Below, one piece after another: positions 15,957 through 56,665 of a stretch of 64,000 nucleotides of DNA. Every line of letters starts with the position of its first letter. The stretch's first letter is position 1. Position numbers and translations under genes: made by a program. The stretch is taken from assembly GCF_008386395.1 (NCBI RefSeq), contig NZ_CP043761.1, positions 806,001 through 870,000 on the forward strand. Direction: 5' to 3'. This DNA comes from Paenibacillus sp. 37 (GTDB taxonomy: Bacteria; Bacillota; Bacilli; Paenibacillales; Paenibacillaceae). The notes beneath the pieces were generated by a model. It searched no databases, was not told the DNA's origin, and was given only the letters and a program-made list of their open reading frames with translations.

Positions 15957-15973
15957 AGAAGGCTAAGCACATG

Positions 15974-35835: not shown

Positions 35836-35872
35836 GAACGCAGAGGACAGAAATAAGCTGAAGAAGCGAACC
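35836..35872 (+). repeat. Half copy of the long-hairpin repeat (left arm)
   Basis: AACGCAGAGGACAGAAATAAG and CTGAAGAAGCGAA follow the left-arm consensus of the repeat seen at 49608 and 56538. The matching right arm is missing; a diverged GCGCCTTTATC at about 35913 may be its inner remnant. Confidence 0.6.
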
Positions 35873-35973
35873 TAAACGTTTCTGATAGAAAGCTACTTCG
35901 GAAGCATACGCTGCGCCTTTATCAAGCTTGGAACAAGTTTTTCTAACTAAAGTATAGGTTGATTATGTGTTCA

Positions 35974-36103
35974 CGCTGGAACGGAGAAGGTAGAAAAAAC
36001 CTGGAGAAACGAAGTGTTCGCCTTTATTCCCGGATTTTAACCCTTTGAAAGTAAGATTAAAAAATCCGGGAATAACAGCGATCGAAAGGTTGTTCTGCAT
36101 TCG
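35974..36103 (+). repeat. Long-hairpin intergenic repeat, copy A
   Basis: 130 bp between purB and purC. Left arm: ACCTGG, GAAACGAAGTGTTCGCCTTTAT, then inner stem TTCCCGGATTTT; right arm AAAATCCGGGAA, then AACAGCGATCGAAAGG and TTGTTCTG. The arms pair through most of their length with a CT/CA internal loop next to the inner stem. The loop is about 20 bases. No coding potential. Confidence 0.85.
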
Positions 36104-36167
36104 GAGTGGCCCGCGTGATGAGGGGAATTGAACTTATATTTTACATCTCCTGAAAGAAGGTGAGCCC

Positions 36168-37040
36168 ATGGCACTGTCCACTGCGGCAGATCTCGTTAAA
36201 GCACCTCTGTTATATAAAGGAAAAGTACGTGAATTGTACGATCTGGGTGAACATTTTCTGATCGTGGTTACCGACCGAATCTCGGCTTTTGATTACGTGC
36301 TGGACCCGGCAGTTCCCGAGAAAGGAAACGTACTGAACAAACTCAGCAGTTTCTGGTTTGAACTGACAGGCAGCATGATGGAGAATCACGTGGTTCATAC
36401 CGATGTGAATCAATTGGGTGATCTCGTCACAGACCCAGAATTGCTCAAAGACCGCATCATGGTAACCCGCAAAGCAGAACGCATTGATATTGAATGTGTT
36501 GTGCGTGGATACATCACTGGTGGTGGATGGAGACAATACGAGACGAGCGGTGAAGTGAATGGCATTAAACTGCCTGACGGACTTCGCAAGAACGCCAAAC
36601 TCGAAGTTCCCATTTTCACCCCGGCAGCCAAAAACGATGTTGGTCATGATGAAGACATCCCAATGGATCGCATGAAAGAACTGGTGGGAGACGCACTCGC
36701 AGTTGAGCTTCAGGAAAAAAGCCTGCGACTGTACGAATTCGCCCGTGATTACTGTGATCAGCGTGGCATCATTCTGGCAGACTGCAAATTCGAGTTCGGT
36801 ATCGTGGACGGCAAGGTGATCCTGATTGACGAAATCTTCACGCCAGATGCTTCACGCTTCTGGGCCAAAGAGAATTATGAACTCGACATCGAGATTGACA
36901 GCATGGATAAAGAGCCAGTGCGCACCTATCTCGCTGGAACCGATTGGGACAAGAACAGCAAACCTGATCCACTCCCGCAAGAGGTAGTTGAAGCAACAAC
37001 CGCAAGATACGTCGATATTTATAATCGTTTAACGAAATAA
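36168..37040 (+). CDS. purC: SAICAR synthetase
   Basis: A 290-residue enzyme joining CAIR and aspartate with ATP to SAICAR. YKGKVRELYDLGEHFLIVVT and DRISAFDYVL at the N-terminus, then ECVVRGYITGGGWR and LADCKFEFG, ILIDEIFTPDASRFW are PurC signatures. AGAAGGTGAG lies about 5 bases before the ATG. It is flanked on both sides by copies of the hairpin repeat. The length is that of the longer PurC type with a C-terminal extension rather than the 240-residue Bacillus form. Confidence 0.96.
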   Translation: MALSTAADLVKAPLLYKGKVRELYDLGEHFLIVVTDRISAFDYVLDPAVPEKGNVLNKLSSFWFELTGSMMENHVVHTDVNQLGDLVTDPELLKDRIMVTRKAERIDIECVVRGYITGGGWRQYETSGEVNGIKLPDGLRKNAKLEVPIFTPAAKNDVGHDEDIPMDRMKELVGDALAVELQEKSLRLYEFARDYCDQRGIILADCKFEFGIVDGKVILIDEIFTPDASRFWAKENYELDIEIDSMDKEPVRTYLAGTDWDKNSKPDPLPQEVVEATTARYVDIYNRLTK

Positions 37041-37052
37041 TAAAGTTTAACG

Positions 37053-37189
37053 TTTGAGCGCGAGCTACGGGAAAGTTTGGCTTTCGATCGCTGTTGCCCC
37101 CGGAATGTTCTGATCGTATCCTTTTTTCAAAAGGAAACATTCCGGTTGCAAAGGCGAGCACTTCGTTTCTCTAGCTCAAATCTTTCCCT
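37053..37189 (-). repeat. Long-hairpin intergenic repeat, copy B (inverted)
   Basis: About 137 bp, in opposite orientation to the other copies. Read on the minus strand: outer GGGAAAG/CTTTCCC, GAAACGAAGTGCTCGCCTTTGC, inner stem CCGGAATGTT; then AACATTCCGG and GCAACAGCGATCGAAAG. The inner stem sequence differs from that of copies A, D and E on both sides and still pairs perfectly. Confidence 0.85.
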
Positions 37190-37314
37190 CCGCCAGTGTT
37201 CAAACTGGTGGGTGAGGCAATTAAAGAACAAAGACTTCTATTAAACAGGAAGTCTATAAATAGTAAAACAGTATAGTTACTCATGTAACGTAAAGACCAT
37301 TCACCGTTTCCACG

Positions 37315-37336
37315 TAATGGTCAGTCTAGACCATTA
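37315..37336. repeat. Perfect small inverted repeat between purC and purS
   Basis: TAATGGTC-AGTCTA-GACCATTA, an 8 bp perfect stem. A GTTAC-TCAT-GTAAC stem lies just upstream (37276-37289) and CCGCCAGT/ACTGGTGG near 37190-37213. None is followed by T residues. The 554 bp gap 37041-37594 holds these plus repeat copies B and C and no gene. Confidence 0.6.
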
Positions 37337-37394
37337 CACACCGTGCAATGTAAAAGGTTTAGGCCTTTAAAAAAACGTCGCATGGACTAGCGGA

Positions 37395-37518
37395 GGGGCG
37401 GAATTGTTCTTAAAGGAGCGAAGCGTTCGCCTTTGTCCCCGGGTTTTGACCGCAAAGCGGGCCAAAACAATCCAAAAAACCTGGGGACAACAAGCGACCG
37501 GAAAGAACAATCCGCCCC
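37395..37518 (+). repeat. Long-hairpin intergenic repeat, copy C
   Basis: 124 bp. An almost perfect outer stem, GGGGCGGAATTGTTCTT with AAAGAACAATCCGCCCC (one bulged base), encloses AGGAGCGAAGCGTTCGCCTTTGT, inner stem CCCCGGGTTTT, loop, AAAACCTGGGG and ACAACAAGCGACCGG. Outer and inner stems differ in sequence from the other copies yet pair. Confidence 0.87.
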
Positions 37519-37594
37519 GGAGCAAGCTCCACACCCCTTTTTTAACAGCATAAAGCATTTATCCCGTTCATTACTGAGGAGGAACATAAGGATC

Positions 37595-37840
37595 ATGATC
37601 AAAGCAACCGTATATGTCACTATTAAGCAAAGCGTACTCGACCCGCAAGGCGTAGCTGTTCAAGGAGCCCTGCATTCAATGGGATTCAACGAAGTGGAAA
37701 GTGTACGGATCGGTAAAGTCATGGAACTGAACCTGGATACAACAGATCGTGCGGAAGCGGAGAAACGTTTGAAAGTCATGTGTGAAAAGCTGCTGGCCAA
37801 CACCGTTGTTGAAGATTACCGCTACGAATTGGAGGGTTAA
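37595..37840 (+). CDS. purS: FGAM synthase subunit PurS
   Basis: An 81-residue small subunit of the three-part formylglycinamidine ribonucleotide synthase, needed to channel ammonia from PurQ to Pur[22 protein letters not shown] and [12 protein letters not shown] are typical. The ATG at 37595 has GAGGAGG about 12 bases before it; the open frame reaches back into repeat copy C but has no start signal there. Confidence 0.95.
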
Positions 37841-37844
37841 TCTC

Positions 37845-38534
37845 ATGAAATTTGCAGTTCTTGTGTTCCCTGGCTCCAACTGTGACATCGACTGTTACAA
37901 GGCAGTGGAAGATGCGATTGGACAAGAGGTTGATTATGTATGGCACACGGCTACAGATCTTTCGGCTTATGATTGTATTTTAGTTCCGGGTGGTTTCTCT
38001 TATGGTGACTACTTGCGTTGCGGAGCAATTTCCCGCTTTGCACCGGTAATGAACGAGGTAGCGAAAGCTGCTGAACAAGGTAAATATATTTTGGGTATTT
38101 GCAACGGATTCCAGATCCTGACGGAAGCGGGATTGCTTCCAGGTGCATTGATTCGTAATACTTCCCTGAAATTCCGTTGTCACGATACGGTATTGAAAGT
38201 GGCGAATGCAGATACACCATTTACACGTGACTATGCACCCGGTGAAGAGATTATCATCCCGATTGCTCACGGCGAAGGCAACTATTATTGCGACGAGGAG
38301 ACGCTCGCGAGTCTGCAAGCGAACAACCAGATCGTATTTACGTATGGTACCAACCCTAACGGTTCCTTGGGTGATATTGCAGGAGTTTGTAACGAGGCTG
38401 GAAACGTGGTCGGCATGATGCCGCATCCAGAGCGTGCAGTGGATTCACTGTTTGGTTCGGAAGACGGCAAACGTATGTTTACATCTATTTTGAAAGCATG
38501 GAGGGATCGGCATGACGCAGCAGCTATCCGCTAA
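37845..38534 (+). CDS. purQ: FGAM synthase glutaminase subunit PurQ
   Basis: A 229-residue class I glutamine amidotransferase supplying ammonia to Pur[24 protein letters not shown], the catalytic Cys in GICNGFQIL and MMPHPERAV are present. Its GGAGGG lies in the last codons of purS, so translation is coupled; the start is the ATG at 37845. It overlaps purL by 23 bp. Confidence 0.96.
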
Positions 38535-40755
38535 GGAACCAACAGCAGAACAGGTCGCAGAACATAAACTTTACGCACAAATGGGCGTATCTGACAGCGA
38601 GTATGAGCTGATCTGTGAGTTCATGGGCCGCAAGCCAAACTACACGGAAATTGGTGTGTTCAGTGTAATGTGGTCTGAGCATTGTGCTTATAAAAACTCC
38701 AAGCCATTGCTGCGCCGTTTCCCAACCACTGGACCACGTGTCCTGATGGGACCTGGTGAAGGTGCCGGTATCGTGGATATCGGTGATAACCAGGCCGTTG
38801 TATTCAAAATTGAAAGCCATAACCATCCTTCCGCGGTTGAGCCTTATCAAGGTGCGGCAACAGGTGTGGGCGGCATTATCCGTGATATTTTCTCCATGGG
38901 TGCAAGACCGGTAGCAATACTGAACTCCCTGCGTTTCGGTAAGCTGGAGAGTGATCGCGTTAAATATTTGTTCGAACATGTGGTAGCGGGTATTGCTGGA
39001 TACGGTAACTGTATCGGTATTCCTACCGTTGGTGGCGAAGTGATGTTTGATGAGAGCTATGAAGGCAATCCGCTGGTTAACGCCATGTGTGTGGGTCTGA
39101 TTGATCATGACAAGATCCAGCGCGGTGTAGCTAAAGGTGTAGGTAACCCAGTCTATTATGTTGGGCCACCGACAGGCCGCGATGGTATTCATGGAGCAAC
39201 CTTTGCATCGGTTGAACTGACGGAAGAATCCGAGTCCCAACGGACAGCGGTTCAGGTCGGTGACCCGTTTATGGAGAAACTGGTGATGGAATCTTGTCTG
39301 GAATTGATCGACACGGGCATCGTGCTCGGAATTCAGGATATGGGTGCTGCGGGTCTGACATGTTCGAGTGCAGAGATGGCAAGTAAAGCGGGTAACGGTC
39401 TGGAACTGTATCTGGATCAGGTACCACAGCGTGAAGAAGGCATGACCCCTTACGAGATGATGTTGTCTGAGTCCCAAGAACGGATGTTGTTCGTTGTTGA
39501 GCCGAAGGATGAGGCGCAGGCGATGGAAATCTTTGAACGTTGGGGCGTAATCTGTGCCAAAGTTGGTAAAGTAACGGATGACGGCCGTCTGAAATTGATC
39601 CACCACGGCGAAGTGGTCGGAGATATGCCGGTAACGGCTTTGGTTGACGAATGTCCAGTCTATGACAAACCTTCTTCTGTACCTGCCTACTACGAGCAAA
39701 GTGCTTCCATCGACACGCTTCGTTACGACGAAGTGTCGGATCTCGGCGGAGCGCTGAAACAAGTGCTGGCTTCACCAACAGTAGCAAGTAAAAAATGGAT
39801 TTATGATCAATACGACTACATGGTGCGTACAAGCACTGCTGTTCGTCCAGGTTCGGATGCGGCTGTAGTTACGATTCGTGGCACACGCAAAGGTCTCGCA
39901 ATGACAACGGACTGTAACGGACGTTATGTGTATCTTGATCCTGAAGTTGGCGGACGGATTGCCGTGAGTGAAGCTGCGCGTAACATTGTATGTTCTGGTG
40001 CAGAGCCACTGGCAATTACGGACAACCTGAACTTTGGTAACCCGGAGAAGCCGGATATTTTCTGGCAAATGGAGAAAGCGGTAGACGGTATGGCAGAAGC
40101 TTGCCGTGTGCTGGATACACCGGTAATCGGTGGTAACGTAAGTCTGTATAACGAAAACGCCAAAGGCTCCATCTATCCAACGCCAGTTGTCGGTATGGTA
40201 GGTCTCGTTCATGATACGGATCATATCACGACACAAGCATTCAAATCCGAAGGTGATGTGATCATCCTCCTCGGTGAGACAAAAGCTGAACTAGGCGGTA
40301 GCGAGCTGCAATACGCGGTTCATGGTCAAACGGAAGGTCGTCCACCAGAACTGAATTTGCAAACGGAAAAAGCGTTGCTGGGAACCGTGCTGGAAGCTAT
40401 TCAATCCGGTCTCGTTCGCTCTGCACATGACTTGTCTGAAGGTGGCTTGGCTGTAGCACTCGCAGAGTCTTGTATCAGCGGTAACGTAGGAGCACAGGTG
40501 AATGTGGAGACTGCACTGCGTGCAGATCACGCCCTGTTCAGTGAGAGTCAATCCCGTATCTTGTTGTCGGCTACGCCAGAGCAAGCGGGTAAACTTGAAG
40601 CATTTGTACGTGAGCGTGGTGTACCTGTAGCTGTGATTGGACGTGTAGAAGGAAGTAACCTGACGATTGAATTGAACGGAACATCAGCCGTGAGCGAACC
40701 TGTAGGAGGTTTGGCTCAGGTCTGGGAGGATGCGATTCCATGTCTCATGAACTGA
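38512..40755 (+). CDS. purL: FGAM synthase large subunit PurL
   Basis: A 747-residue ATP-dependent amidotransferase subunit turning FGAR into FGAM, of the small PurL type that works with PurS and Pur[48 protein letters not shown] and [11 protein letters not shown] are hallmarks. ATGGAGGG precedes the ATG by about 6 bases, inside purQ. It overlaps purF by 16 bp. Confidence 0.97.
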
Positions 40756-42218
40756 TGACAGGACCGTTGTGGACAGGCGATTATTATAATGAAGGGTCCG
40801 GCAAGGAAGGACTCGACAAACTGAAGGAAGAATGCGGCGTGTTCGGGGTGTACAGACACCCTGATGCGGCTTCGCTCTCCTATTATGGACTGCATGCGCT
40901 CCAACATCGGGGCGAAGAAAGTGCAGGCATGTGTGTGAGTGATGGCAGCCAGTTTAACTATCATCGTGGCATGGGTCTGGTGAAAGAAGTGTTCACCAAA
41001 GATCTGATGCAGACGTTAACCGGGGATATTTCCATTGGACATGTCCGTTATTCAACAAGTGGTGACAGTAAACTGACGAACGCACAGCCACTGGTATTCA
41101 AATACCGTGATGGCGATTTGGCAGTAGCAACCAACGGAAACATTGTGAATGCACCAACGATCCGGCGTGAGCTGGAGCAGAGCGGTTCCATTTTCCAAAC
41201 AACAAGTGATACCGAGGTTATTGCGCATCTGATTGCACGTTCCTCCAAAGGGCTTGTGGAAGCGGCAAAAGAGGCATTCCAGCGCATTGTTGGCGGTTAT
41301 GCGTTTCTGATCATGACCAATGACAAGCTGCTCGTAGCTTCCGATCCACACGGACTTCGTCCGCTCACGATGGGTAAGCTCGGAGATGCGTATCTGTTTG
41401 CATCCGAGACGTGTGCGCTGGAAACAATTGGTGCAGAGTTAATTCGTGATATTGAACCCGGTGAACTGCTTGTGTTGGATGCAGATGGACTGCATGAAGA
41501 TCGCTTCGATCATCACAAACACCGCAAGGCATTATGTGCGATGGAATATATATATTTTGCTCGTCCGGATAGTGATATGAATGGTGCGAACCAACATGCT
41601 GCCCGTAAACGGATGGGAAGCCGCATGGCGATTGAGTCGTTTGTGGATGCGGACTTGGTTACGGGGGTACCAGATTCCAGCATCTCGGCGGCGATTGGAT
41701 ATGCTGAACAGACAGGTATTCCGTATGAGATGGGTATGATCAAGAACAAATACACCGGACGTACATTTATCCAGCCAAGTCAGGAATTGCGGGAGCAGGG
41801 CGTGAAGATGAAGCTGAGCGCCGTGCGTCGCGTTGTGGAAGGCAAACGTGTGGTTATGATTGACGACTCCATCGTACGGGGAACGACCTCCCGGCGGATC
41901 GTGAACATGCTGCGTGATGCAGGAGCAACGGAAGTTCATGTACGCATTACATCGCCACCTTTCAAAAACCCTTGTTTCTATGGCATTGATACACCGGACA
42001 GCCGCGAATTGATCGCCTCACAGCTGTCGGTGGAAGAAATCTGTCGTGAAATTAATGCGGACTCCTTGGAGTTCCTCAGTCCCGATGGACTGATTGCATC
42101 CATTCAGGGAGATAATCAGGATGATCCCAAGGGCGGGCTTTGCCTCGCATGTTTTGATAATGATTACCCAACCCGCCTCGACTTTGGCGGCGAAGAAAAA
42201 TTCGGTTGCAGCTGTTAA
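40740..42218 (+). CDS. purF: Amidophosphoribosyltransferase
   Basis: A 492-residue enzyme for the first step, PRPP plus glutamine to phosphoribosylamine. C32 in [11 protein letters not shown] should become the N-terminal nucleophile after propeptide removal, which makes the propeptide 31 residues, longer than the 11 of Bacillus subtilis. The PRPP motif is [14 protein letters not shown]. Cysteines for the Fe-S cluster of the Bacillus type are seen ([20 protein letters not shown]). GGGAGG lies 10 bases before the ATG, inside purL. Confidence 0.96.
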
Positions 42219-42221
42219 TGC

Positions 42222-42665
42222 ATGCGGATGAGAAAGAGTTATAACGAAGGTGACGTGTTCTTGATTCCGATGAAGGATGGCCGATTTGCGGTATGCCAGG
42301 TGGTATGCACACTTAAAGGTCGTTTTAAAAAGACATTTTCGTTCGGCGTGATGAGCATTCAGCGTGACGAAACCGAAAAGTTGGAAGATGGCGATTTTCT
42401 CTTCTATTCTTATGGGAACCGTAGAAGCAACGTTATATTCACTTCTCCGGCCAATATCCGAAACGGATCGTGGAGGATCGTGGGTAACACACCTTTGACG
42501 CCCGAAAAGGAAAAGCTGAAAGTGTTTCAGTGTGCCGGACATTTATACTGCGGTGATGAGTACATTCGTAACCTCCCGATAGAAGAGTATAGTCAGTTTA
42601 ATACGCTCGGCGTGGCTGGGTTTGAATTGGTACAAAACCATCTGTTAGAGATGGAGCAAGGATAG
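42222..42665 (+). CDS. Imm26-like protein inside the purine operon
   Basis: A 147-residue protein starting four bases after purF. The opening SYNEGDVFLIPMKDGRFAVCQVV and the GVMSIQRD and FTSPANIRNGSWRIVGN stretches resemble the Imm26 fold of polymorphic-toxin immunity proteins. No toxin gene is near. The ribosome binding site is weak for either ATG (42222 or 42228), so it may depend on translation of purF. It is not part of the known purine pathway; the family call is from pattern recognition and should be tested by a profile search. Confidence 0.62.
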   Translation: MRMRKSYNEGDVFLIPMKDGRFAVCQVVCTLKGRFKKTFSFGVMSIQRDETEKLEDGDFLFYSYGNRRSNVIFTSPANIRNGSWRIVGNTPLTPEKEKLKVFQCAGHLYCGDEYIRNLPIEEYSQFNTLGVAGFELVQNHLLEMEQG

Positions 42666-42688
42666 GTAGGTTGAACTTAACATAGACA

Positions 42689-42735
42689 CGATAAAAGCTG
42701 GAGATAACGGCAATCGAAAGGTTGTCCAGTCATCG
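42689..42735 (+). repeat. Miniature copy of the long-hairpin repeat (copy F)
   Basis: 47 bp before purM: CGATAA then CTGGAGATAACGGCAATCG, AAAGGTTGTCCAG and TCATCG. It keeps the outer CGAT/ATCG ends and nearly the whole right arm of copies D and E, while the inner left arm and loop are deleted. CTGGA/TCCAG still closes a small stem. Confidence 0.75.
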
Positions 42736-42794
42736 AAGAGGTACGTGTTAATACGCTGGTTCAATTTTTATAAGATACGAAGGGTGTGATGGTT

Positions 42795-43835
42795 GTGTCC
42801 GAAGCATATAAAAAGGCCGGCGTCGATATCGCGGCAGGTAATGAAGCGGTTGAACGGATGAAAAAACACGTGAAGCGTACCTTCCGTCCGGAAGTGATGA
42901 CAGATCTGGGTGGATTCGGTGCCCTGTTCGGTTTGAACAAAGATAAATACGATGAGCCTGTACTTGTATCGGGTACGGATGGCGTAGGCACCAAGCTGAA
43001 GATTGCATTTGCCATGGACCGTCACGATACCATCGGAATTGACGCGGTAGCCATGTGTGTGAACGACATTGTGGTACAGGGTGCAGAACCACTCTTCTTC
43101 CTCGACTATCTGGCATGTGACAAAGTCATTCCTGAGAAGATCGAAGCTATTGTTGCGGGTATCGCTGAAGGCTGTCATCAATCGGGTTGTGCGCTGATTG
43201 GTGGCGAGACGGCAGAGATGCCGGGCATGTACAGTGAAGGCGAATACGATATTGCCGGATTCACGGTGGGCATCGTGGACAAAGCAAAGATCATCAACGG
43301 CACAACCATCGCCCCTGGCGACACTGTGATTGGATTGGCCTCTAGCGGTGTACACAGTAACGGATTCTCGCTGGTACGCAGACTTTTGTTGGAAGATGCG
43401 GGACTTGATCTGCATGATGAAGTAGCGGAACTGGGCGGTAAGCTGGGGGATTCCCTGCTGGAACCTACGAAAATCTATGTTAAACCCCTGTTGTCCCTGC
43501 TGGAAAAGGTAAAAGTAAAAGGCATGGCACACATTACAGGTGGTGGCTTCATCGAGAATATCCCACGTATGTTGCCGAGCAACGTGAATGTGGATATTAA
43601 CTACGGCTCTTGGCCGATCCTGCCGATCTTCAACCTGTTACAGGAAAAGGGATCTGTCTCGAACCGTGACATGTTCACCACATTTAACATGGGTGTTGGG
43701 CTTGTACTGGTCGTTAATGAAGCAGATGCAACGGAAGCACTGCAACAATTGAAAGCATCTGGTGAAGAAGCGTACATCATTGGCCGTGTTACTGAAGGAG
43801 ATGCGCGAGTAACCTTCACAGGAGCGGATGTTTAA
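42795..43835 (+). CDS. purM: AIR synthetase
   Basis: A 346-residue enzyme closing FGAM to AIR with [53 protein letters not shown] and [14 protein letters not shown] are standard PurM. The GTG at 42795 gives the usual MSEAYK start, with AAGGG 10 bases upstream; an ATG at 42789 and GTG at 42786 are in frame but sit too close to that site. It overlaps purN by one base. Confidence 0.95.
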
Positions 43836-44452: not shown

Positions 44453-44572
44453 TACCACTTATATAACAGAAGTCGAAACTTGGTACGCATTTTGTGATAT
44501 TTCTCGGGAAATAAATCGGCTGTGTTTCGTCAGGAAACGCGAAGCCATGGGACATTAAAGGAGGAGCATATT

Positions 44573-46120: not shown

Positions 46121-46139
46121 AGCAAAAAAGATTTAATAA

Positions 46140-46189: not shown

Positions 46190-46249
46190 GATTGTTCAAT
46201 ACGCAGTAGCGTAACAAATCCAGTTATGCACGGAGGGGGAACAGAGCGA

Positions 46250-47515: not shown

Positions 47516-47524
47516 AATAAATAC

Positions 47525-47578
47525 AAGAGCCCGTAAAGATGTATACCGAAAAGGTATTTGCATCCTGCGGGCTCTTTG
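47525..47578 (+). terminator. Terminator of the purine operon
   Basis: AAGAGCCCG pairs with CGGGCTCTT; GATGTATACC pairs with GGTATTTGCATC around a GAAA-type loop; TTT follows. Long and stable though the T run is short. Confidence 0.85.
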
Positions 47579-48202: not shown

Positions 48203-48236
48203 GGAGGTGAATCCCTGAGAATCGGGGAAATCATTG
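48203..48236 (+). promoter_or_regulatory. Ribosome binding site with hairpin before a TTG start (first CNNM gene)
   Basis: GGAGGT at 48203-48208 lies 25 bases before the TTG, too far as a line. Between them CCCTGA-GAA-TCGGGG (48213-48227) folds into a 6 bp stem, leaving GAAT and AAATCA as linkers, an effective spacing of 10. An in-frame TGA at 48216 excludes any earlier start. The second CNNM gene has the same layout with a different stem. Confidence 0.8.
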
Positions 48237-49571
48237 GACATAATTACCATATTGAATATCGCTTTACTTATTATCTTGATTGCATTGACTGCATTTTTCG
48301 TAGCATCGGAGTTCGCTGTAGTCAAAATTCGTACATCAAGAGTAGATCAACTGGTTGCCGAGGGCAATAAAAAGGCTGTACTCGCCAAAAAAGTTGTCTC
48401 GGACCTGGATTATTATCTGTCAGCCTGTCAGCTCGGTATCACGGTCACTGCTCTAGGACTGGGAGCACTCGGAAAACCGACGGTTGAGAGATTGTTATAC
48501 CCGGTATTCAATTATTTAGACGTACCTGCTTCGATCTCATCCATTGCTTCCTATGCGATTGCCTTTATCCTCGTCACGTTTTTGCATGTGGTTGTTGGTG
48601 AGATGGCACCCAAAACATTGGCGATTCAGTTTTCGGAAAAACTGACGTTATTACTCTCGCCGCCTCTATATTGGTTTGGTAAAATCATGTACCCATTCAT
48701 CTGGGCGCTTAATGGAACCTCACGTGTTCTTCTGAGAGGATTCGGTGTAAAGCCTGCCAAACATGATCAAGCCTACTCGGAGGACGAGATCAAAATCATC
48801 ATGAACCAGAGTTATGAAGGTGACGAGAACAACAAGACCAAGCTTTCATATCTGGAAAATGTATTTGTATTCGACGAACGTGATGCCAAAGACATCATGG
48901 TACCACGTACGGAACTGGTGACGTTAGATCAGGATATGACCTATGACGATATTATTCCTATATTGGATGAACATAACTATTCACGTTACCCTGTCATCGA
49001 GGATGGGGACAAGGACCGCATCATCGGCGTTGTAAATGTGAAAAAGATTTTGCCTGACATGGTAGCCGCAAGATCATATCAACTAAGCGAGTTCGTTCGT
49101 GAGATCCCATTCGTTTCCGAAGTTACAAGTATCCAGGATGCGATGATTAAAATGCAGCAGGAACGTGTACACATGGCTGTGGTCGTGGATGAATACGGCG
49201 GTACTTCGGGAATTATTACGATGGAGGATATCCTGGAGGAGCTGGTCGGTGAGATTCGTGATGAATTCGATGCCGATGAGGTGGCCGATATCCAGGAGAC
49301 CGGAGAGAATCAATATCTCATTAATGGTCGGGTACTTTTGGATGAAGTGGAGCGGCAGTTCGGGCTTAGCTTTGAAGGAAACGAAGAGATGGATACCGTG
49401 GCCGGATGGATTCAGTACCAGAAGGGTGTAGGTGTGGAAAAAGGCGACACGGTAGAACACGGCGATTATGTCTGGACCGTTGTGGATACCGAAAATTATC
49501 ACATCAAACAAGTTCTTCTGGAACGAGTGAGCGGCGCGCAGGTTGAGGAAGTTGCAAGCGATCTGGCGTAA
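48234..49571 (+). CDS. CNNM/CorC-type transporter-associated membrane protein (DUF21-CBS-CorC_HlyC)
   Basis: A 445-residue membrane protein. The DUF21 domain with three to four helices covers about 1-185 ([52 protein letters not shown]), then two CBS domains (about 215-335, [38 protein letters not shown]) and a CorC_HlyC domain (about 350-430). CNNM proteins export or help move magnesium, and Bacillus MpfA is one. Start is TTG, see the hairpin feature. Often misnamed hemolysin. Confidence 0.92.
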
Positions 49572-49607
49572 TCTTACCCGGAAATTTTTTAAATTTAAAT
49601 GTTTTTG

Positions 49608-49732
49608 CGATAACGGAGAGGGCAGAATAGACTGAAGAAGCGAAGCGTCCGCCTTTATCCCGGATTTTCCCCTTTTATATAAGGATCTAAAAAATCTGGG
49701 ATAACAGCGGTCGGAAGGTTATTCTGTCATCG
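49608..49732 (+). repeat. Long-hairpin intergenic repeat, copy D
   Basis: 125 bp between the two CNNM genes. CGATAACGGAGAGG, CAGAATA, GAAGAAGCGAAGCGTCCGCC, TTTATCCCGGATTTT; loop; AAAATCTGGGATAA, CAGCGGTCGGAAGG, TATTCTG, TCATCG. The outer CAGAATA/TATTCTG and CGAT/ATCG pairs are perfect, and the inner stem has one G-T pair. Confidence 0.88.
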
Positions 49733-49767
49733 GAGTGGTCTGAGCAACCTTAATATAAATTTTACTT

Positions 49768-49801
49768 GGAGGTGAATCCCTCAACCTGAGGGAAATCATT
49801 G
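49768..49801 (+). promoter_or_regulatory. Ribosome binding site with hairpin before a TTG start (second CNNM gene)
   Basis: GGAGGT at 49768-49773, then GAAT, CCCTCA-ACC-TGAGGG (49778-49792), AAATCA and TTG. Linkers and distances equal those of the first CNNM gene, while stem bases differ in paired fashion. Confidence 0.8.
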
Positions 49802-50881
49802 GACGGAATAATAGCCTTGAATTTATTTTTAGTAGCCGTATTTATAGGTCTGACAGCCTTTTTCGTTGGAGCCGAATTTGCAATTCTTAAAGTACGGATG
49901 TCCCGAATCGATCAATTGATCTCTGAAGGGAACAAAAAGGCAGTACTGGCCAAAAAAGTGGCGCACAACCTGGATTATTATCTGTCGGCATGTCAATTGG
50001 GGATTACCATCACGGCGCTGGTATTGGGAGCCTTGGGTGAACCTACCGTTGAGAAAATGCTGCATCCGTTGTTTGAACGAATGGAAGTGCCGGCTGCGTT
50101 ATCTACCGTGCTTTCCTATGGTATTGCTCTGGCGATCATTACGTTCCTGCACGTGGTTATTGGTGAATTGGCACCGAAAACACTGGCGATTCAATTTGCA
50201 GAGAGAATGACGCTGTTGCTGGCACCACCACTGTACTGGTTCGGTAAAATCATGAATCCATTCATCTACGCGCTGAATGGAGCTGCTCGTCTGTTGCTTG
50301 GCATATTTGGTGTAAAACCTGCCGGGCATGATACCGTTCACTCCGAAGAAGAGCTGAAGCTGATCATGGCACAGAGCTACGAGAGTGGCGAGATCAACCA
50401 GACGGAGCTGGACTATCTCAAAAACATTTTTGCTTTTGATGAGCGTCTGCTTCAGGAGATTATGATTCCAAGAGATAAAATTGTTACTCTGAATAAGGAA
50501 ATGCCGATTGATCAGATCATTGAGACGCTAAATCGACATGAATACACGCGATACCCTGTCATTGCAAATGGGGATCAGGCTCATTTTGTTGGCTTTATTA
50601 ATACAAAAGAAATGCTGACGAGTGTGGCTGCGGGCAGAGATTTCAATATGGAGACATTTGTTCACAATACGCCGAGTTTTTCCGAGCGTTCTCCAATTAA
50701 GGATGTACTGATCCAGATGCAGCAGAGCCGTGTACACATTGCCACCGTGAAAAACGAGGCAGGTGCTACGGTAGGTATGGTTACGATGGAGGATATCCTT
50801 GAAGAGATTGTCGGAGACATCAAGGATGAATACGAGCATAAAGATTTGGTGAATCCACCAAAAAGAATGAAACTGGTTTAA
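49799..50881 (+). CDS. CNNM/CorC-type membrane protein lacking the CorC_HlyC domain
   Basis: A 360-residue paralogue of the preceding gene. The DUF21 part ([52 protein letters not shown]) and the CBS pair (IMIPRDKIV, RYPVIANGDQ, MEDILEEIVGDI) are close to it, but the chain ends about 15 residues after the second CBS domain with a basic tail, so the CorC_HlyC domain is absent. No frame for that domain follows. Start TTG as for the neighbour. Copies lie 228 bp apart with repeat copy D between them. Confidence 0.9.
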   Translation: MDGIIALNLFLVAVFIGLTAFFVGAEFAILKVRMSRIDQLISEGNKKAVLAKKVAHNLDYYLSACQLGITITALVLGALGEPTVEKMLHPLFERMEVPAALSTVLSYGIALAIITFLHVVIGELAPKTLAIQFAERMTLLLAPPLYWFGKIMNPFIYALNGAARLLLGIFGVKPAGHDTVHSEEELKLIMAQSYESGEINQTELDYLKNIFAFDERLLQEIMIPRDKIVTLNKEMPIDQIIETLNRHEYTRYPVIANGDQAHFVGFINTKEMLTSVAAGRDFNMETFVHNTPSFSERSPIKDVLIQMQQSRVHIATVKNEAGATVGMVTMEDILEEIVGDIKDEYEHKDLVNPPKRMKLV

Positions 50882-50945
50882 GAAGCAGTAATACAAAAGT
50901 AATAGAGGAATACGAAACAACCTAATCAATCTTTATAATGCTAAG

Positions 50946-50977
50946 CAGGTTCCCGGAGTGATCGGGGCCTGTTTTTT
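50946..50977 (+). terminator. Terminator after the second CNNM gene
   Basis: CAGGTTCCCG pairs with CGGGGCCTG (one mismatch or wobble), then six T residues. Confidence 0.85.
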
Positions 50978-51006
50978 ATATTCAATCTTAATTTTAAAAT
51001 AAAAGC

Positions 51007-51035
51007 TTGCATATTGAGGTCCAATGGATTAATAT
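51007..51035 (+). promoter_or_regulatory. Promoter of mhqO-mhqD
   Basis: TTGCAT, 17 bases, TAATAT, about 100 bp before mhqO and just upstream of a palindrome. Confidence 0.55.
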
Positions 51036-51046
51036 AAATTTAAAGA

Positions 51047-51062
51047 ATCTTAATTTAAAGAT
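51047..51062. promoter_or_regulatory. Candidate MarR-type (MhqR-like) operator
   Basis: ATCTTAATTTAAAGAT, an imperfect 16 bp palindrome with ATCTT/AAGAT-type arms, 11 bases past the -10 box. MhqR of Bacillus subtilis represses mhqNOD through a palindrome with ATCT/AGAT ends. No mhqR gene lies in the window. Confidence 0.5.
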
Positions 51063-51135
51063 AAATAACAAAGAACAACAAATAAAAGAAGCAAAAACAA
51101 CCTATGATACAACTAAAACCAAAGGAGTGGAGATT

Positions 51136-52086
51136 ATGTTCAGAACTTCAGGAATTCATCATATTACAGCTTTTGTTGACGATGCACAGAAAAACGTTGA
51201 TTTTTACGCAGGTGTGTTGGCGCTCAGACTGGTGAAAAAAACAATTAACTTTGATGCACCAGATGTGTATCACTTGTATTACGGGAACGAGCAGGGTGCA
51301 CCGGGCACAATCATTACCTTTTTCCCACAGCAAAATTCAAGAAGAGGTGTCATTGGTTCCGGTCAGACGGGAGTTACCGTATATGCGGTTCCTGTAGGAA
51401 GCCTGCCTTTCTGGAAAGAACGTCTTGCTTCCTTTGACATTCCATATGAAAATAAAACCAGATTTGGTGAGCAGTACATTCGTTTCTTCGACAAAGGCGG
51501 TCTGTTGCTTGAACTGGTTGAGCGTGAAGGCGGTCAGCCAAGCAACTGGAGTTTCAACGGTGTGACACCGGAGCATGCCATCAAAGGATTTGGCGGAGCT
51601 GTATTGTTCAGCCACGTTCCTGAAAAAACCATGGACGTCCTGGTGAGCAAACTGGGTCTGGAGCAAGTCGGTGAAGAGAACGGACTCCTTCGTCTTCAGG
51701 CAAGTGGCGATATCGGTCAGATCATCGATATTCAGTCCACAGGCATCCAACGCGGGATTGGTGGAGCCGGAACGGTTCACCATATTGCATGGCGTGCCAA
51801 AGATTACGTGGAGCATGAACAAATTCAGCAGGATCTTGAACAATCCGGATATCATCCAACGCCAGTCATTGACCGTCAATACTTCAACGCTGTGTATTTC
51901 CGGGAGCCGGGTGGTATACTGTTCGAACTGGCTACGGATCCTCCGGGATTTGCACGGGATGAACCAGCAGAGAGCATGGGTGAGAAACTGATGTTGCCTG
52001 AATGGTATGAACCACAGCGTGAGCAGATTGAACAATTGTTGCCACGAATTGAAGTACGTGAATGGAAAGGAGAGTCCAAATCATGA
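51136..52086 (+). CDS. mhqO: Ring-cleaving dioxygenase, MhqO family
   Basis: A 316-residue vicinal-oxygen-chelate protein with two glyoxalase-type halves. Metal ligands are likely the His pair in GIHHITAF, the His of GTVHHIAWRAKD and Glu in EPGGILFELATDPPGF. Known relatives cleave hydroquinone or catechol-type rings and protect against quinones. AAAGGAG lies about 9 bases before the ATG at 51136; the frame continues upstream into AT-rich leader without a start signal. Overlaps mhqD by 4 bp. Confidence 0.9.
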   Translation: MFRTSGIHHITAFVDDAQKNVDFYAGVLALRLVKKTINFDAPDVYHLYYGNEQGAPGTIITFFPQQNSRRGVIGSGQTGVTVYAVPVGSLPFWKERLASFDIPYENKTRFGEQYIRFFDKGGLLLELVEREGGQPSNWSFNGVTPEHAIKGFGGAVLFSHVPEKTMDVLVSKLGLEQVGEENGLLRLQASGDIGQIIDIQSTGIQRGIGGAGTVHHIAWRAKDYVEHEQIQQDLEQSGYHPTPVIDRQYFNAVYFREPGGILFELATDPPGFARDEPAESMGEKLMLPEWYEPQREQIEQLLPRIEVREWKGESKS

Positions 52087-52706
52087 CCACAACCAATACA
52101 ATGAAACATATCTATAAAGCAGGTGCTCAGCCGGATGCGCCAACAATCCTGTTGCTTCATGGCACAGGCGGAACCGAGAATGATCTGATCGGTCTGGCGG
52201 AGATGATCGCACCAGGAGCTGGCATACTTGGGGTGCGGGGTAATGTATCGGAGAACGGGATGCCCCGTTTCTTCCGCCGTCTAGCCGAAGGTGTTTTTGA
52301 TGAAGAAGATCTGATTGCTCGTACGGCAGAGCTGGGATCTTTTGTCGATGCAGCTGCGGTGGAATACGGTTTCGATCGGTCCAACGTGTATGCACTGGGT
52401 TACTCTAACGGGGCCAACATTGCGGCAAGCTTGATCTTCCATCAAGCAGATGTATTCAAAGGTGCAATTCTGCATCACCCGATGGTACCGCTGCGCGGAC
52501 TGGAACTGCCGGATCTGAAAGGTCTGCCTGTGTTCATTGGTGCGGGCGAGAACGATCCGATTGTACCAAGACGTGAAACGGAGGAACTTGCTTCGCTACT
52601 GAGCGGTGCAGGTGCCGATGTAAACACGTATTGGGAGCGTCAGGGTCATCAGTTGACTCGTACCGAGGCAGAAGCCGCGGCAGCTTGGTTTAAGACACAG
52701 GCGTAA
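52083..52706 (+). CDS. mhqD: Carboxylesterase, MhqD family
   Basis: A 207-residue alpha/beta hydrolase. LLLHGTGGTENDL gives the oxyanion loop, the nucleophile lies in LGYSNGANIA, the Asp in GENDPIVP and the His in RQGHQLT. It pairs with mhqO as in the mhqNOD operon, where MhqD is a putative hydrolase of quinone-derived products. AAAGGAG lies about 9 bases before the ATG, in the end of mhqO; start and stop overlap as ATGA. Confidence 0.9.
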   Translation: MTTTNTMKHIYKAGAQPDAPTILLLHGTGGTENDLIGLAEMIAPGAGILGVRGNVSENGMPRFFRRLAEGVFDEEDLIARTAELGSFVDAAAVEYGFDRSNVYALGYSNGANIAASLIFHQADVFKGAILHHPMVPLRGLELPDLKGLPVFIGAGENDPIVPRRETEELASLLSGAGADVNTYWERQGHQLTRTEAEAAAAWFKTQA

Positions 52707-52739
52707 ATTGGGTGGATAGACGGTTATGAAACGTATAGA

Positions 52740-52772
52740 GACAGCCTGATCGAGAAGATCGGGCTGTTTTTC
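52740..52772 (+). terminator. Terminator of mhqO-mhqD
   Basis: ACAGCCTGATC pairs with GATCGGGCTGT (one mismatch or wobble) around GAGAA, then five T residues. Confidence 0.9.
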
Positions 52773-52923
52773 CTTTTTATTTTGATCATCTTTAGGAAGA
52801 AGAAATGATTGACTGGTGTTATGTAACCGTTACTAACCGGGTAAACATTTGAATGTGTGGTAGATAACCTTGTATGCTTAGTGATATAGCTATGCATCAA
52901 CATCATGAACTGGAGGGGTTAAT

Positions 52924-55215
52924 GTGGAACGTGACATCAAGGAACTGGTACAGCAGATGACACTGGAAGAAAAAGCGGGTATGTGCTCAGGACTGGACTT
53001 TTGGCATCTGAAAGGGGTGGAGCGTCTTGGCATTCCATCCATCATGGTGACGGACGGACCTCATGGGCTGCGCAAGCAGGATGGAAGTGCGGATCATCTG
53101 GGTCTGACGTCGAGCGTGCCTGCAACCTGTTTCCCTTCTGCGGCAGGACTGGCTAGTTCATGGGACAAGGAGCTGGCGCGTCAGGTCGGGGTGGCCTTGG
53201 GGGAGGAGTGTCAGGCCGAGGATGTAGCGGTATTACTTGGACCGGGTGTAAATATTAAACGTTCCCCACTGGGCGGTCGTAATTTTGAATACTTTTCCGA
53301 AGATCCGTTGTTATCTACGCAGATGGCTACCGGTCATATTCAGGGTGTGCAGAGCCAGGGTGTGGGTACATCTCTCAAACACTTTGCAGTCAATAATCAG
53401 GAAGAACGGCGCATGTCGATTGATGCGGTGGTGGATGAACGGACGCTGCGCGAGATTTATCTGGCGAGCTTTGAAGGTGCGGTGAAGGATGGACAACCGT
53501 GGACGGTGATGTGTTCCTACAATAAGGTGAACGGTACGTATGCTGGTGAGAATGAATGGTTGCTTACGGATATCCTGAAAGACGAATGGGGACACGAAGG
53601 TCTTGTGGTATCCGACTGGGGCGCGGTCAATGAACGTGCAGACGCCCTTGCAGCAGGACTGGAACTGGAGATGCCCACAAGTGGTGGAATTGGTGAGCGT
53701 AAAGTGATCGATGCTGTAGAGAACGGACAACTGCCGCTGGACAAGCTGGATCGGGCGGTGGAGCGTTTGCTTACGCTGATCTTTAATGCTGTTGATCAAA
53801 AGCAAGATGGGGCTACATATAATAAGGACGAACATCACCACCTTGCGCGCAAGGTGGCAGCCGAGAGTATGGTTTTGCTGAAAAATGAAAAAGGTCTCCT
53901 GCCGCTGGGGCGTGAAGGCGAAGTGGCGTTAATTGGGGCATTTGCGCGTAAACCCCGCTTCCAGGGCGGTGGCAGTTCCCACATTAATCCAACCAAAGTG
54001 GATGATATTGTGGAAGAGATGACCCAGGTGGCTGGCGAAGGTGTAACCTTCTCATATGCTCCAGGTTATCGGATTGAAGCGGATGATGTGGATGAAACAT
54101 TGATGCATGAGGCTATTCAGGCAGCGCAGTCGGCTGATACTGCCGTGGTGTTCGTTGGATTGCCGGATCGTTATGAATCCGAAGGGTATGATCGTGCCCA
54201 TCTGCGTCTGCCTGACAATCATATTCGTCTGATCGAAGAGATTGCGAAGGTTCAATCCCGTGTGGTCGTTGTGCTGAGCAATGGATCTCCAGTGGAGATG
54301 CCTTGGCTGCCTCAAGTACAAGCCGTGCTTGAAGCTTATCTTGGTGGACAGGCCGTTGGTGGAGCGATAGCTGATCTGTTGTATGGAGAGGTGAACCCGT
54401 CCGGTAAACTGGCAGAGACGTTCCCTGCCAAGCTCAGTCATAATCCATCTTATCTGAATTTCCCGGGTGAAGGGGATCGTGTTGATTACCGGGAAGGCAT
54501 CTTTGTTGGTTACCGCTATTATGATAAAAAAGAGCTGGAGCCACTGTTTCCATTTGGTTATGGACTGAGTTATACAACATTTGAATATGCTGACCTGCAG
54601 GTAAATCGTACAGAATTGACGGATCAGGATGAAGTGAATGTACATGTTCGAGTTACCAATACCGGAGATATCGCTGGCAAAGAGATAGTACAGCTGTATG
54701 TCAGGGATGTAGAGAGCACAGTTATTCGTCCGGTGAGAGAATTAAAAGGATTTGCCAAGGTGGCCCTTGAACCTGGAGAGTCCAAAGTGGTGAGCTTCAC
54801 ACTAAACAAACGTTCATTCGCCTATTACAACGTAGATATGAAGGACTGGCATGTGGAGACCGGAGAGTTCGAGATTCAGGTAGGCAGCTCCTCACGGGAC
54901 ATTCATGTGCACACACGTGTGAATGTAGAGTCTACAGCGACATTCCTTCCAACCTATACGCGTAATAGTACATTGGGTGATATCCAGCGTGATCCGGCGC
55001 ATAAGAAGCTATTGGAACAGGCTTTGCAACAGTTCCAGAAAGCCAGCGGGTTCGGTGGTGAGGATGCTGGTGATCACGCAGATATGATGGATGCGATGAT
55101 GAAATATATGCCACTGCGTGCACTGGTTGCGTTTAGCGGTGGGGCCATGACGGAAGAAGCGATGAATGAACTTCTGGAGCAGCTGAACAACAAGGATCAT
55201 GGTATTCGGGGATAA
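52924..55215 (+). CDS. Glycoside hydrolase family 3 beta-glucosidase
   Basis: A 763-residue cytoplasmic GH3 enzyme releasing glucose or a related sugar from beta-linked oligosaccharides or glycosides. The N-terminal barrel has [41 protein letters not shown] and the nucleophile D231 in VVSDWGA; the GH3 C-terminal domain has [14 protein letters not shown] and a fibronectin III-like domain (about 575-645) follows the [14 protein letters not shown] motif. No signal peptide. The start is a GTG with GGAGGGG about 5 bases before it. An extra C-terminal helical part of about 95 residues is present. Confidence 0.94.
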
Positions 55216-55345
55216 GGGGCAGTAGCCTTAGACCGAGTATCTGTCCTTCATGGGATTAAGTAATTGTGCAATCCGTGCAGGAACTGCGCAGAAAGCAACA
55301 AGAAGGTGTATATGAGGGCCAGCCGCATAGTGGCTGGTACAGTTA

Positions 55346-55377
55346 CCCGATCCGATTATGGATCGGGTTTTCTTTTT
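55346..55377 (+). terminator. Terminator of the GH3 gene
   Basis: CCCGATCC pairs with GGATCGGG around GATTAT, then TTTTCTTTTT. A CCAGCC/GGCTGG stem lies just upstream. The rest of 55216-55587 holds the promoter and Fur box described next. Confidence 0.88.
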
Positions 55378-55489
55378 GCATAAAGAAAAAGAGGGAGAAA
55401 GGAACGGTGGGATAGGCGGATAATCCATGCAACGTAACAGAAAGCGATAGAAACGACAGGACGGCTGTAACTTTGCTGAAGCAACATGG

Positions 55490-55541
55490 TTGTCGTAAAG
55501 GATGGATTATTCTATAATGAAGTAATTGATAATCATTTTCA
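55490..55541 (+). promoter_or_regulatory. Promoter and Fur box of the alpha/beta hydrolase gene
   Basis: TTGTCG, 17 bases, TATAAT (55513-55518), followed by TGATAATCATTTTCA (55527-55541), which matches the 7-1-7 Fur palindrome TGATAATnATTATCA at all but one position. Placed over the transcription start, it should block the promoter when iron is plentiful. Confidence 0.78.
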
Positions 55542-55587
55542 ATTAGATTCGGTGATAGATGACTATGCACGTAATCAGGAGGGGAAT

Positions 55588-56478
55588 ATGAATCCTAACC
55601 CTAGCTCACATACATTTGGTTCAAGTGCGTTTGTTCAGACCCGCGATGGTCGCAAACTACATTATATGTCCAGGGGAACAGGAGAATTGACGGTAGTGTT
55701 TGAATCAGGTATGGGCGCCTCCAGATCGAACTGGGGACTGGTTGCACCAGCTATTGCTGAGCATGCACGTGCTGTTGTGTATGACAGGGCAGGGGCGGGG
55801 AGAAGTGATGTCGACTCGGCTCCCCGCAACCTTGAACGCATTGCAGGGGACCTTGGGGAACTGCTGACAGCTCTGGGCCCGGGCCCATTCATTCTGGTTG
55901 GACATAGCTGGGGAGGTCCGATCGTACGGGCTGCGGCGGCTGCAAATCGCAATAGATTACGAGGCATTATCCTGGTAGATCCATCAGACGAGCATTGCGA
56001 AATGTATTTTTCCAAGCTTACTAAAAAGAGCTTTGCCATCAATGGTTTCATTATTCCAATCATGGCGCGGACTGGCTTATATAAGAAACTTGGCAGCAAA
56101 GCTGGAAGTGTTCAGCCTGACGATGTGGCAGCGGATCATCTCAAGGAAGATTTCACTGTACGGGCAGCTAGCACGATGCTTGCGGAAGGCAAAACGTTTC
56201 TGGATGACATGGCAGCGCTGCTGAAACATCCTCCGGCTCTGGGTGATCTGGAAGTTAGCGTGATCTCGGGTACGAACCCGGGCAAGGGAGAGGGGAAAAT
56301 CAGACCCGCCCTTATCACGGCGCATCGCCAGACGGTGAGCCAGCTGTCTAATGCGAGATGGATTGGGGCGGATCAATCGGGGCATATGGTTATGTATACA
56401 GACCCTCAGGTCATTATTGATGAAATTGTACGAATGATAAATGAAGTGGGCTCAAGCGCAAGAACAGATCAAAAGTGA
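55588..56478 (+). CDS. Alpha/beta hydrolase, probably iron-regulated
   Basis: A 296-residue hydrolase of the epoxide-hydrolase/proline-iminopeptidase-like fold. VFESGMGASRSNWG gives the oxyanion region, the nucleophile lies in LVGHSWGGPIV, the Asp is probably in ILVDPSDEH or near residue 230, and the His in DQSGHMVMY. AGGAGGGG lies 4-7 bases before the ATG at 55588; the frame extends 34 codons upstream through the Fur box and promoter, so the longer start is rejected. The Fur box suggests work in iron uptake, for example siderophore ester hydrolysis (inference). Confidence 0.85.
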   Translation: MNPNPSSHTFGSSAFVQTRDGRKLHYMSRGTGELTVVFESGMGASRSNWGLVAPAIAEHARAVVYDRAGAGRSDVDSAPRNLERIAGDLGELLTALGPGPFILVGHSWGGPIVRAAAAANRNRLRGIILVDPSDEHCEMYFSKLTKKSFAINGFIIPIMARTGLYKKLGSKAGSVQPDDVAADHLKEDFTVRAASTMLAEGKTFLDDMAALLKHPPALGDLEVSVISGTNPGKGEGKIRPALITAHRQTVSQLSNARWIGADQSGHMVMYTDPQVIIDEIVRMINEVGSSARTDQK

Positions 56479-56537
56479 TACAATACAAAGAAAAGCAGTG
56501 CGCGACATTGCTAGATAAGTTGAATTAGTCATTTACA

Positions 56538-56665
56538 CGATAACGAAGAGGACAGAAAGAACCTGAAAAAGCGGAGCGTTCGCCTTTATCACCGGATTTT
56601 TCCCTTGGAAAAGGGAATCAAAAAAATCTGGGGATAACAGCGATTGGAAGGTTGTTCTGTCATCG
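56538..56665 (+). repeat. Long-hairpin intergenic repeat, copy E
   Basis: 128 bp upstream of ilvA. CGATAACGAAGAGG, ACAGAAAGAACCTG, AAAGCGGAGCGTTCGCC, TTTATCACCGGATTTTT; loop CCCTTGG/AAAAGGG; AAAATCTGGGGATAA, CAGCGATTGGAAGGTT, GTTCTGT, CATCG. Arm order equals copies A and D. It lies in the leader of ilvA where a T-box might have been expected; no T-box was seen. Confidence 0.87.

What the first reader, a model, noticed from the sequence alone, without database searches (positions are those of the whole stretch)
35836..56665. Family of long-hairpin intergenic repeats found only between 35.8 and 56.7 kb
Five full copies (35974-36103, 37053-37189 inverted, 37395-37518, 49608-49732, 56538-56665), one miniature (42689-42735) and one half copy (35836-35872) share a layout: outer CGAT/ATCG and CAGAA/TTCTG pairs, GAAGCGAAGCGTTCGCC facing CAGCGATCGGAAGG, a CT/CA internal loop, and an inner stem of 10-13 bp capped by a variable loop. 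All lie between genes and none carries a reading frame. I know of no named Paenibacillus element like this. It may be a non-autonomous mobile palindrome (REP or MITE type) or a conserved RNA structure.
Basis: seen in the sequence. Interest (0 to 1): 0.82.

Follow-up and report, generated by a model that had tools for sequence, protein, structure and literature searches.

The report
Paenibacillus IS630-type hairpin mini-transposon
The repeats are copies of a short, gene-less jumping element that folds into one long hairpin and has spread through Paenibacillus chromosomes, apparently moved by the enzyme of a longer transposon of which no trace was found in this genome.

Summary
The repeats are real, but their boundaries and range are wider than described. 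A well-kept copy is 187 bp (225-226 bp with an extra hairpin module), ends in TATAAGTTGAAC...GTTCAACTTATA and folds into one hairpin. The own genome gave 151 model rows, a capped count. All 36 same-genus genomes searched with the model match, as do 7 of 23 outside the genus. No Rfam family matched them at its gathering score.

Three sites filled in some genomes and empty in others show insertion at TA (in CTAG or CTAT), with TA on both sides. Five 1,162-1,167-bp elements with a DDE_3 (IS630-type) transposase, in four other same-genus genomes, have nearly the same ends and are flanked by CTA and TAG. So this is an IS630-type (Tc1/mariner-like) MITE; the own genome has no DDE_3 match.

Two features exceed an ordinary decaying MITE: conserved internal-loop blocks alternate with variable but paired stems, and orientation fits replication better than gene direction (small lagging-strand sample). 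The core's function is unknown; an effect on messages such as pur is the likeliest.

The parts
56514..56700 (+). Full class-1 element (187 bp) upstream of ilvA; TA at 56512-56513 and 56701-56702
   Evidence: Ends located. Empty site GCTAGACC in other genomes against the filled site here. Core 147.4 bits with R1.
56538..56665 (+).
49608..49732 (+). Core of a copy between two genes that both resemble PaeA/CorC-type (CNNM) proteins (matches below the curated cut-offs); outer arms private
   Evidence: R1 121.5 bits; orthologous copies in G021 and G023
35953..36138 (+). Full class-1 element between purB and purC, ends TATAGGTTG / TTGAACTTATA
   Evidence: an element is present in this gap in 23 of the 30 loci read, out of 40 genomes matched
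35806..35923 (+).
   Evidence: R1 21.7 bits at 35834-35906; sequence; complete copies of this arm type in 12 other loci
37068..37197 (-). Inverted copy downstream of purC with a private outer stem
   Evidence: R1 82.0 bits; fold; orthologous copies in G021 and G023
37386..37519 (+). Copy between purC and the next pur gene; private outer stem GGGGCGGAATTGTTCTT / AAGAACAATCCGCCCC
   Evidence: R1 96.7 bits; 22 orthologs, 98.0% of cells paired, 4 pairs with changes on both sides
42665..42772 (+).
   Evidence: Ends read by eye; not found by R1 at E <= 1

Best explanation
It is a family of IS630-type (Tc1/mariner-superfamily) MITEs. An IS630-type transposase supplied in trans is inferred to cut the element at its TATAAGTTGAAC ends and paste it into TA, mostly within CTAG, duplicating TA. 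The element has no gene and consists almost wholly of one long hairpin. It settles in gaps between genes, where the hairpin would be carried in the transcript. Shown: copies, ends, target, filled and empty sites, transposase-bearing elements with nearly the same ends in relatives, no DDE_3 match in the own genome, fold with covariation, extra-module class. Inferred: the mobilising enzyme, the cut-and-paste step, transcription of the copies, and that RNase III or a similar nuclease could process the hairpin.
For: Filled and empty sites: ilvA, 3 of 30 loci filled, 9 empty reading GCTAGACC and 1 GTTAGACC, 17 without the element but with diverged flanks; L007 site, 2 filled, 1 clean empty, 2 without it but diverged, of 5 loci aligned out of 18 held; one G023 site empty in G000 and G021. 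Ends: of 82 copies picked from the loci held, 45 have both ends within 3 substitutions; outside them stand C 23, T 34, A 38 on the left and T 37, A 36, G 23 on the right, of 45. DDE_3 elements: five in four genomes, 1,162-1,167 bp, all flanked by CTA and TAG; in the four compared (all but L462) the terminal 20 bases match the repeat's right-end consensus at 16-20 of 20. Copy number. PMC2170065 (passages read) gives TA duplication for the IS630 family and, as a title in its reference list, the preference of IS630 for TA in CTAG.
Against: No DDE_3 (PF13358) match in the own genome, and of the 23 near-clade genomes only 3 have one, all partial, so the mobiliser is inferred from other species; the five elements have their frames in two overlapping pieces, so it is not known which are active. 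Cut-and-paste does not by itself explain conserved internal loops, private paired arms or replication-linked orientation. Because TA stands on both sides, a duplication cannot be told from an element with a terminal TA. Of the 11 sites printed only 2 gave clean empty sites; others are deletions or rearranged. At the L048 site 2 of 7 loci aligned are filled and the other 5 give no clean junction. No chance control was run for the shared ends.
Confidence: 0.9

Rival explanations
1. A single-stranded-DNA hairpin element of REP/RAYT or IS200/IS605 type, moved by a Y1 HUH transposase on the lagging-strand template, without target duplication.
For: 115 of 152 copies (76%) are oriented with replication; in gaps between lagging-strand genes 12 of 19 point against the genes. 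PMC6006769 and PMC5371812 (passages read) describe insertion into the lagging-strand template and such an orientation for IS200/IS605.
Against: Only two Y1 matches in the genome, apparently one IS200/IS605-type element, with no repeat nearby. The ends match DDE_3 elements instead. PMC5371812 also reports similar orientation biases for several families whose transposases bind the sliding clamp.
Confidence: 0.05
2. A structured RNA first of all (not exclusive of the MITE origin): copies are kept because the transcript is useful, for example as an mRNA processing or stability element in operons.
For: 91.3% of cells paired over 99 distinct own copies and 242 cells with changes on both sides against 68.3 in shuffles. 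Cross-species copies pair with themselves better than with each other. At one pur site four pairs changed on both sides in one three-genome lineage, 22 genomes. The forward strand folds better than the reverse in 65 of 82 own copies.
Against: The strand-neutral count at orthologous sites gives 76 GU-type against 66 AC-type changes, and there the forward strand folds better in only 19 of 37 stretches. In one search, 21 of 500 shuffles reach the number of changed pairs and 404 of 500 the number of pair types. The purB-purC set of 12 shows no covariation above shuffles. Orientation does not follow the genes on the lagging strand. Decayed and deleted copies exist.
Confidence: 0.3
3. The hairpin is kept by mutation, not selection (also not exclusive): template switching at replication forks corrects one arm from the other, so arms drift in sequence but stay paired.
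For: Private arms pair with their own partner: mean -19.1 against -13.1 kcal/mol for cross pairings in 82 copies, and some extend beyond the usual ends. No clear strand asymmetry of GU and AC.
Against: It does not explain conservation of the unpaired core blocks. In one 12-genome site most changes hit one side only. Of 25 copies with divergent arms, 7 are beaten by more than 16 of 81 cross pairings.
Confidence: 0.25

Closest known systems
RUP of Streptococcus pneumoniae with IS630-Spn1
   Same: Non-autonomous, 107 bp, about 108 intergenic copies, ends like those of an IS630 element, TA target (PMC2229807 and PMC3049150, passages read).
   Different: The present element is nearly twice as long, with conserved internal-loop blocks and a larger class carrying an extra module; the host genome shown here has no DDE_3 match.
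Correia/NEMIS elements of Neisseria
   Same: TA at the ends, long stem-loop, two size classes that differ by an internal insert (PMC2229807, passages).
   Different: No sequence relation was tested. The present insert is about 38 bp and sits at more than one position.
BOX elements of Streptococcus pneumoniae
   Same: Modular, strongly folded, insertions into one another; 60.8% on the leading strand (PMC3049150, passages).
   Different: BOX is made of boxA/B/C modules and is reported to mirror coding bias; here orientation departs from gene direction on the lagging strand.
bcr1 and other BCR repeats of the Bacillus cereus group
   Same: Long interspersed repeats of a Gram-positive spore former, up to 130 copies of bcr1, mobile features (PMC6542083, passages).
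   Different: BCR mobility is linked there to a TTTAT motif; here the target is TA, mostly in CTAG.
REP/REPIN with RAYT
   Same: High-copy intergenic palindromes.
   Different: REPs are 20-40 bp (start of the abstract of PMC3733652 in the listing) and tied to a Y1 transposase (PMC6006769, passages); neither holds here.

Membership tests
MITE (IS630/Tc1-mariner type) | Short, no protein-coding capacity | tested here: met
   187, 225 and 226 bp in the three copies folded; 97 of 99 own copies lie free of predicted genes
MITE (IS630/Tc1-mariner type) | Terminal inverted repeats shared with a transposase-bearing element | tested here: met
   Five DDE_3 elements with nearly the same ends in four genomes, out of 30 loci examined; whether they are active is not known
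MITE (IS630/Tc1-mariner type) | TA target, duplicated | tested here: met
   Three filled/empty sites and end statistics; duplication and a terminal TA cannot be told apart
MITE (IS630/Tc1-mariner type) | Mobilised in trans by that transposase | not testable with these tools
   Needs a transposition assay
REP/REPIN (RAYT) | RAYT-type Y1 transposase gene flanked by the repeats | tested here: not met
   Two Y1 matches in the own genome, no R1 match beside them
Rfam structured RNA | Match to a curated family | tested here: not met
   None on the copies at the gathering score; only a MIR5304 row, E 1.2, at E <= 5 over 35,500-57,000
Structured RNA (new) | Covariation above controls | tested here: met
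   0 of 500 shuffles reach any of the five measures and slid controls are far lower; but the alignment was fitted to the structure and the copies are related. Single-site sets are weaker or negative
Structured RNA (new) | Selection on one strand (GU tolerated, AC not) | tested here: inconclusive
   76 against 66 at orthologous sites; A5 16 against 7; A6 4 against 1
Structured RNA (new) | Transcript seen | not testable with these tools
   No RNA data at hand

The most novel reading that the evidence does not exclude
A transposon-derived hairpin that acts as a mobile structured-RNA (or folded-ssDNA) cassette. Two conserved unpaired blocks form a recognition core for a host or transposon protein, the stems around it are free to change as long as they pair, and an extra hairpin module can be gained or lost. 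Copies parked in operons such as pur have become fixed control or processing sites of their messages.
Probability: 0.3. Interest if true: 0.78.

Novelty: new member of a known kind. Interest (0 to 1): 0.55.

Why it matters
It is a family that my literature searches did not find described, with about 150 or more copies in one genome and matches in each of the 36 same-genus genomes searched with the model. It marks intergenic gaps, including those of the pur operon. Because species differ in filled and empty sites, and because relatives with transposase-bearing elements of nearly the same ends are identified, the mobility and any effect on transcripts can be tested directly. The mixture of conserved loops, variable but paired stems and replication-linked orientation makes it a good case for asking whether selection, template switching or a replication-coupled transposase shapes bacterial hairpin repeats.

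Tried and rejected
Rejected: a known Rfam family. REP/RAYT origin. An autonomous element hidden in the own genome: the end pattern with up to 2 mismatches counted 133 places (control, pattern reversed: 52; listing cut); I read 18 that had no known copy beside them, and they were decayed, truncated or internally deleted copies, a few probably chance matches. A phage vehicle: no match in the phage collection. A plasmid vehicle: one weak Paenibacillus plasmid record. A viral-contig scan gave 11 contigs with the core pattern, not followed up. A 4-bp TAGA duplication, my first reading of ilvA, was dropped when the other two sites fitted TA better. A hammerhead-ribozyme resemblance (CUGAAGA, recalled) was dropped because many copies break it. 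Gene direction as sole cause of orientation was rejected (Fisher p 2.6e-4).

Weak or failed tests: the purB-purC arm set shows no covariation excess; the GU/AC strand test is near balance. An early RNAalifold count (39 GU against 6 AC) was biased by the folding and is not used. The first orientation sample (99 copies: 3 with and 8 against lagging-strand genes) was stronger than the enlarged one (152 copies: 7 and 12); the latter is reported. One row (L125) was dropped from the 37386-37519 alignment before counting because it looked like another copy type (A4, 23 rows; A6, 22 rows). Counts are capped (150 and 59 candidates scored per genome); at least five further copies not listed turned up later (L083 238-365; L172 twice, L175 and L179).

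Literature: searches found no description of this family in the open-licence library; subscription papers are not covered. The original bcr1 paper and Gomez et al. 2014 (orientation and the sliding clamp; title seen in a reference list) were not held. No paper was read whole; only passages found by term.
Full report
What is in the window. The five full copies fold as described, each better than all 200 dinucleotide shuffles. A covariance model R1, built from 34 copies (alignment A2; model), finds 11 rows in the window at E <= 1: the five full copies, the truncated one (35834-35906, 21.7 bits) and five reverse-strand echoes of the palindromes. The miniature at 42689 is not among them. With these ends the ilvA copy is 187 bp, 56514-56700. 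Genes named by NCBIfam above cut-off are purB, purC, purQ, purM and ilvA.

Where it occurs. BLAST with one copy gave 41 rows, with 40 of 192 candidates scored. An exact two-block pattern gave 53 matches against 0 for the reversed control. R1 gave 151 rows at E <= 1 with 150 of 3,198 candidates scored; all listed rows lie on the 7.08-Mb contig, and at least five more copies appeared later.

Anatomy. From the outside in: terminal inverted repeat TATAAGTTGAAC; a stem; a first conserved loop block (AACGGAG on the left, CGNAGTG on the right); a stem; a second conserved block, the asymmetric loop GAAGAAGCGAAG facing GA, with the CT/CA loop; an inner stem; a variable loop. A second class carries an extra module of about 38 bases, roughly CTAAAAGCTTTCTGAAAGAAAGCTGCATCGGAAGCATACGC, in the 5' strand, at more than one position. 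At one orthologous site two genomes differ in the element mainly by this module (site 49).

Structure. On 99 distinct own copies 91.3% of cells pair, 32 of 40 pairs show changes on both sides, and 242 cells do so against 68.3 in shuffles (the alignment was fitted to the structure). On 81 copies from 79 loci of named records, the inner stem pairs at 92.7% with its own partner against 76.9% across copies, with 54 distinct 5' sides; the outer arms of 57 of 81 are among the best 5% of pairings with their own partner, and of 30 of 81 the very best (the core blocks were fixed by the search pattern). In 82 own copies the outer arms give -19.1 kcal/mol with their own partner against -13.1 across copies, though 7 of the 25 with divergent arms do not stand out. 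At single orthologous sites the evidence is mixed. The 37386-37519 site, in 22 genomes, has four pairs changed on both sides, all in one three-genome lineage, and 98.0% of cells paired; 21 of 500 shuffles reach the number of changed pairs. The purB-purC site, in 12 genomes, shows no excess. A strand-neutral count gives 76 GU-type against 66 AC-type changes; the forward strand folds better in 65 of 82 own copies but in only 19 of 37 orthologous stretches. So the fold is conserved across the family, but selection on one RNA strand is not shown.

Mobility. Upstream of ilvA, three of 30 loci (L133, L135, L138) hold the element; nine read GCTAGACC and one GTTAGACC without it; 17 lack it but have diverged flanks (the start of the line for L133 was cut, and the same copy is seen). 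One of the three filled loci has the extra module. At a second site G000 and G008 are filled and G015 reads CATCTAGCACACC; two further loci lack it with diverged sequence. At a third, G023 is filled while G021 reads AACTAGACAAC and G000 AACTATACAAC. All fit C-TA-[element]-TA-G, with CTAT instead of CTAG in G000. Among 45 of 82 copies with both ends within three substitutions, the flanks are C (23) T (34) A (38) on the left and T (37) A (36) G (23) on the right; 11 of 45 read CTA and TAG exactly. In purB-purC an element is in 23 of 30 loci read and missing from the 7 more distant ones, with two alternative arm types. Of 18 own copies compared with G021 and G023 by automatic projection, 9 are filled in both. 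Other sites show deletions, and one element nested in the loop of another.

The partner. The own genome has no DDE_3 match. Of 75 same-genus genomes, 21 have one, among them 3 of the 23 near-clade genomes, with partial matches only. Of the 30 loci fetched, L442, L447, L462, L463 and L464 (four genomes) hold 1,162-1,167-bp elements with ends like TATAAGTTGAACTAA on both sides, all flanked by CTA and TAG. Their open frames lie in two overlapping pieces, not joined here. The terminal twenty bases of L463 are identical to the right-end consensus of the repeat. R1 finds no hairpin core in the 15 DDE_3 loci searched, so ends are shared and the interior is not. TA duplication and CTAG preference are known for IS630 (PMC2170065, passages and a reference title). 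That DDE_3 marks the IS630/Tc1 group is from my own knowledge.

Orientation. Genes were called by my own hexamer score and the terminus was assumed at 3.54 Mb. Of 152 copies 115 point with replication. In gaps between leading-strand genes 82 of 102 do. Between lagging-strand genes 12 of 19 do, that is against the genes. In other gaps (including those with a predicted gene overlap or no call) 21 of 31 do. A gene-direction rule is rejected (p 2.6e-4) and a replication rule is not (p 0.13), on only 19 lagging-strand gaps. The genes around the copies are themselves 79% leading (329 of 415), so the overall share alone says little. A similar bias is reported for transposons whose enzyme binds the sliding clamp (PMC5371812, passages), which offers a reason without single-stranded transposition.

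Conclusion. Membership in the IS630-MITE kind is met on each feature that could be tested. How it works at the message level is inference: a hairpin of about -67 kcal/mol (ilvA copy) in intercistronic gaps, with a median of 66 bases from the core end to the next gene of either direction, is likely to affect processing or stability of the message.

Noticed in passing
L392, near base 6920: The extra module sits in the opposite orientation within an element, as if it had been inserted on its own. The other 76 of 77 matches of the module in the loci held (overlapping loci counted more than once) had a core in the expected direction beside them.
   Followed up: partly
L110, L113, L114, L116 (orthologs of window 37386-37519): The purC-downstream copy is repeated two to four times in these genomes, in L113 with its flanks.
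   Followed up: no
window 15869-15968 and 32515-32616: Two purine riboswitches; the second lies upstream of purB and the other pur genes between which the repeats sit.
   Followed up: no
L430-L440: Eleven IMG/VR contigs contain the core pattern; in 7 of them the match begins within the first 900 bases of the stretch held.
   Followed up: no
G000:C1:933640 and G000:C2:207086 (L223, L224): Two near-identical Y1 transposase genes with a further frame downstream that looks like tnpB (my reading), one on each contig.
   Followed up: partly
L444, L445, L448, L450, L465, L466: DDE_3 elements with other terminal repeats (such as TATAGAACGCAATTAAG, from a simple scan for inverted ends), which may mobilise further MITE families in the genus.
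   Followed up: no
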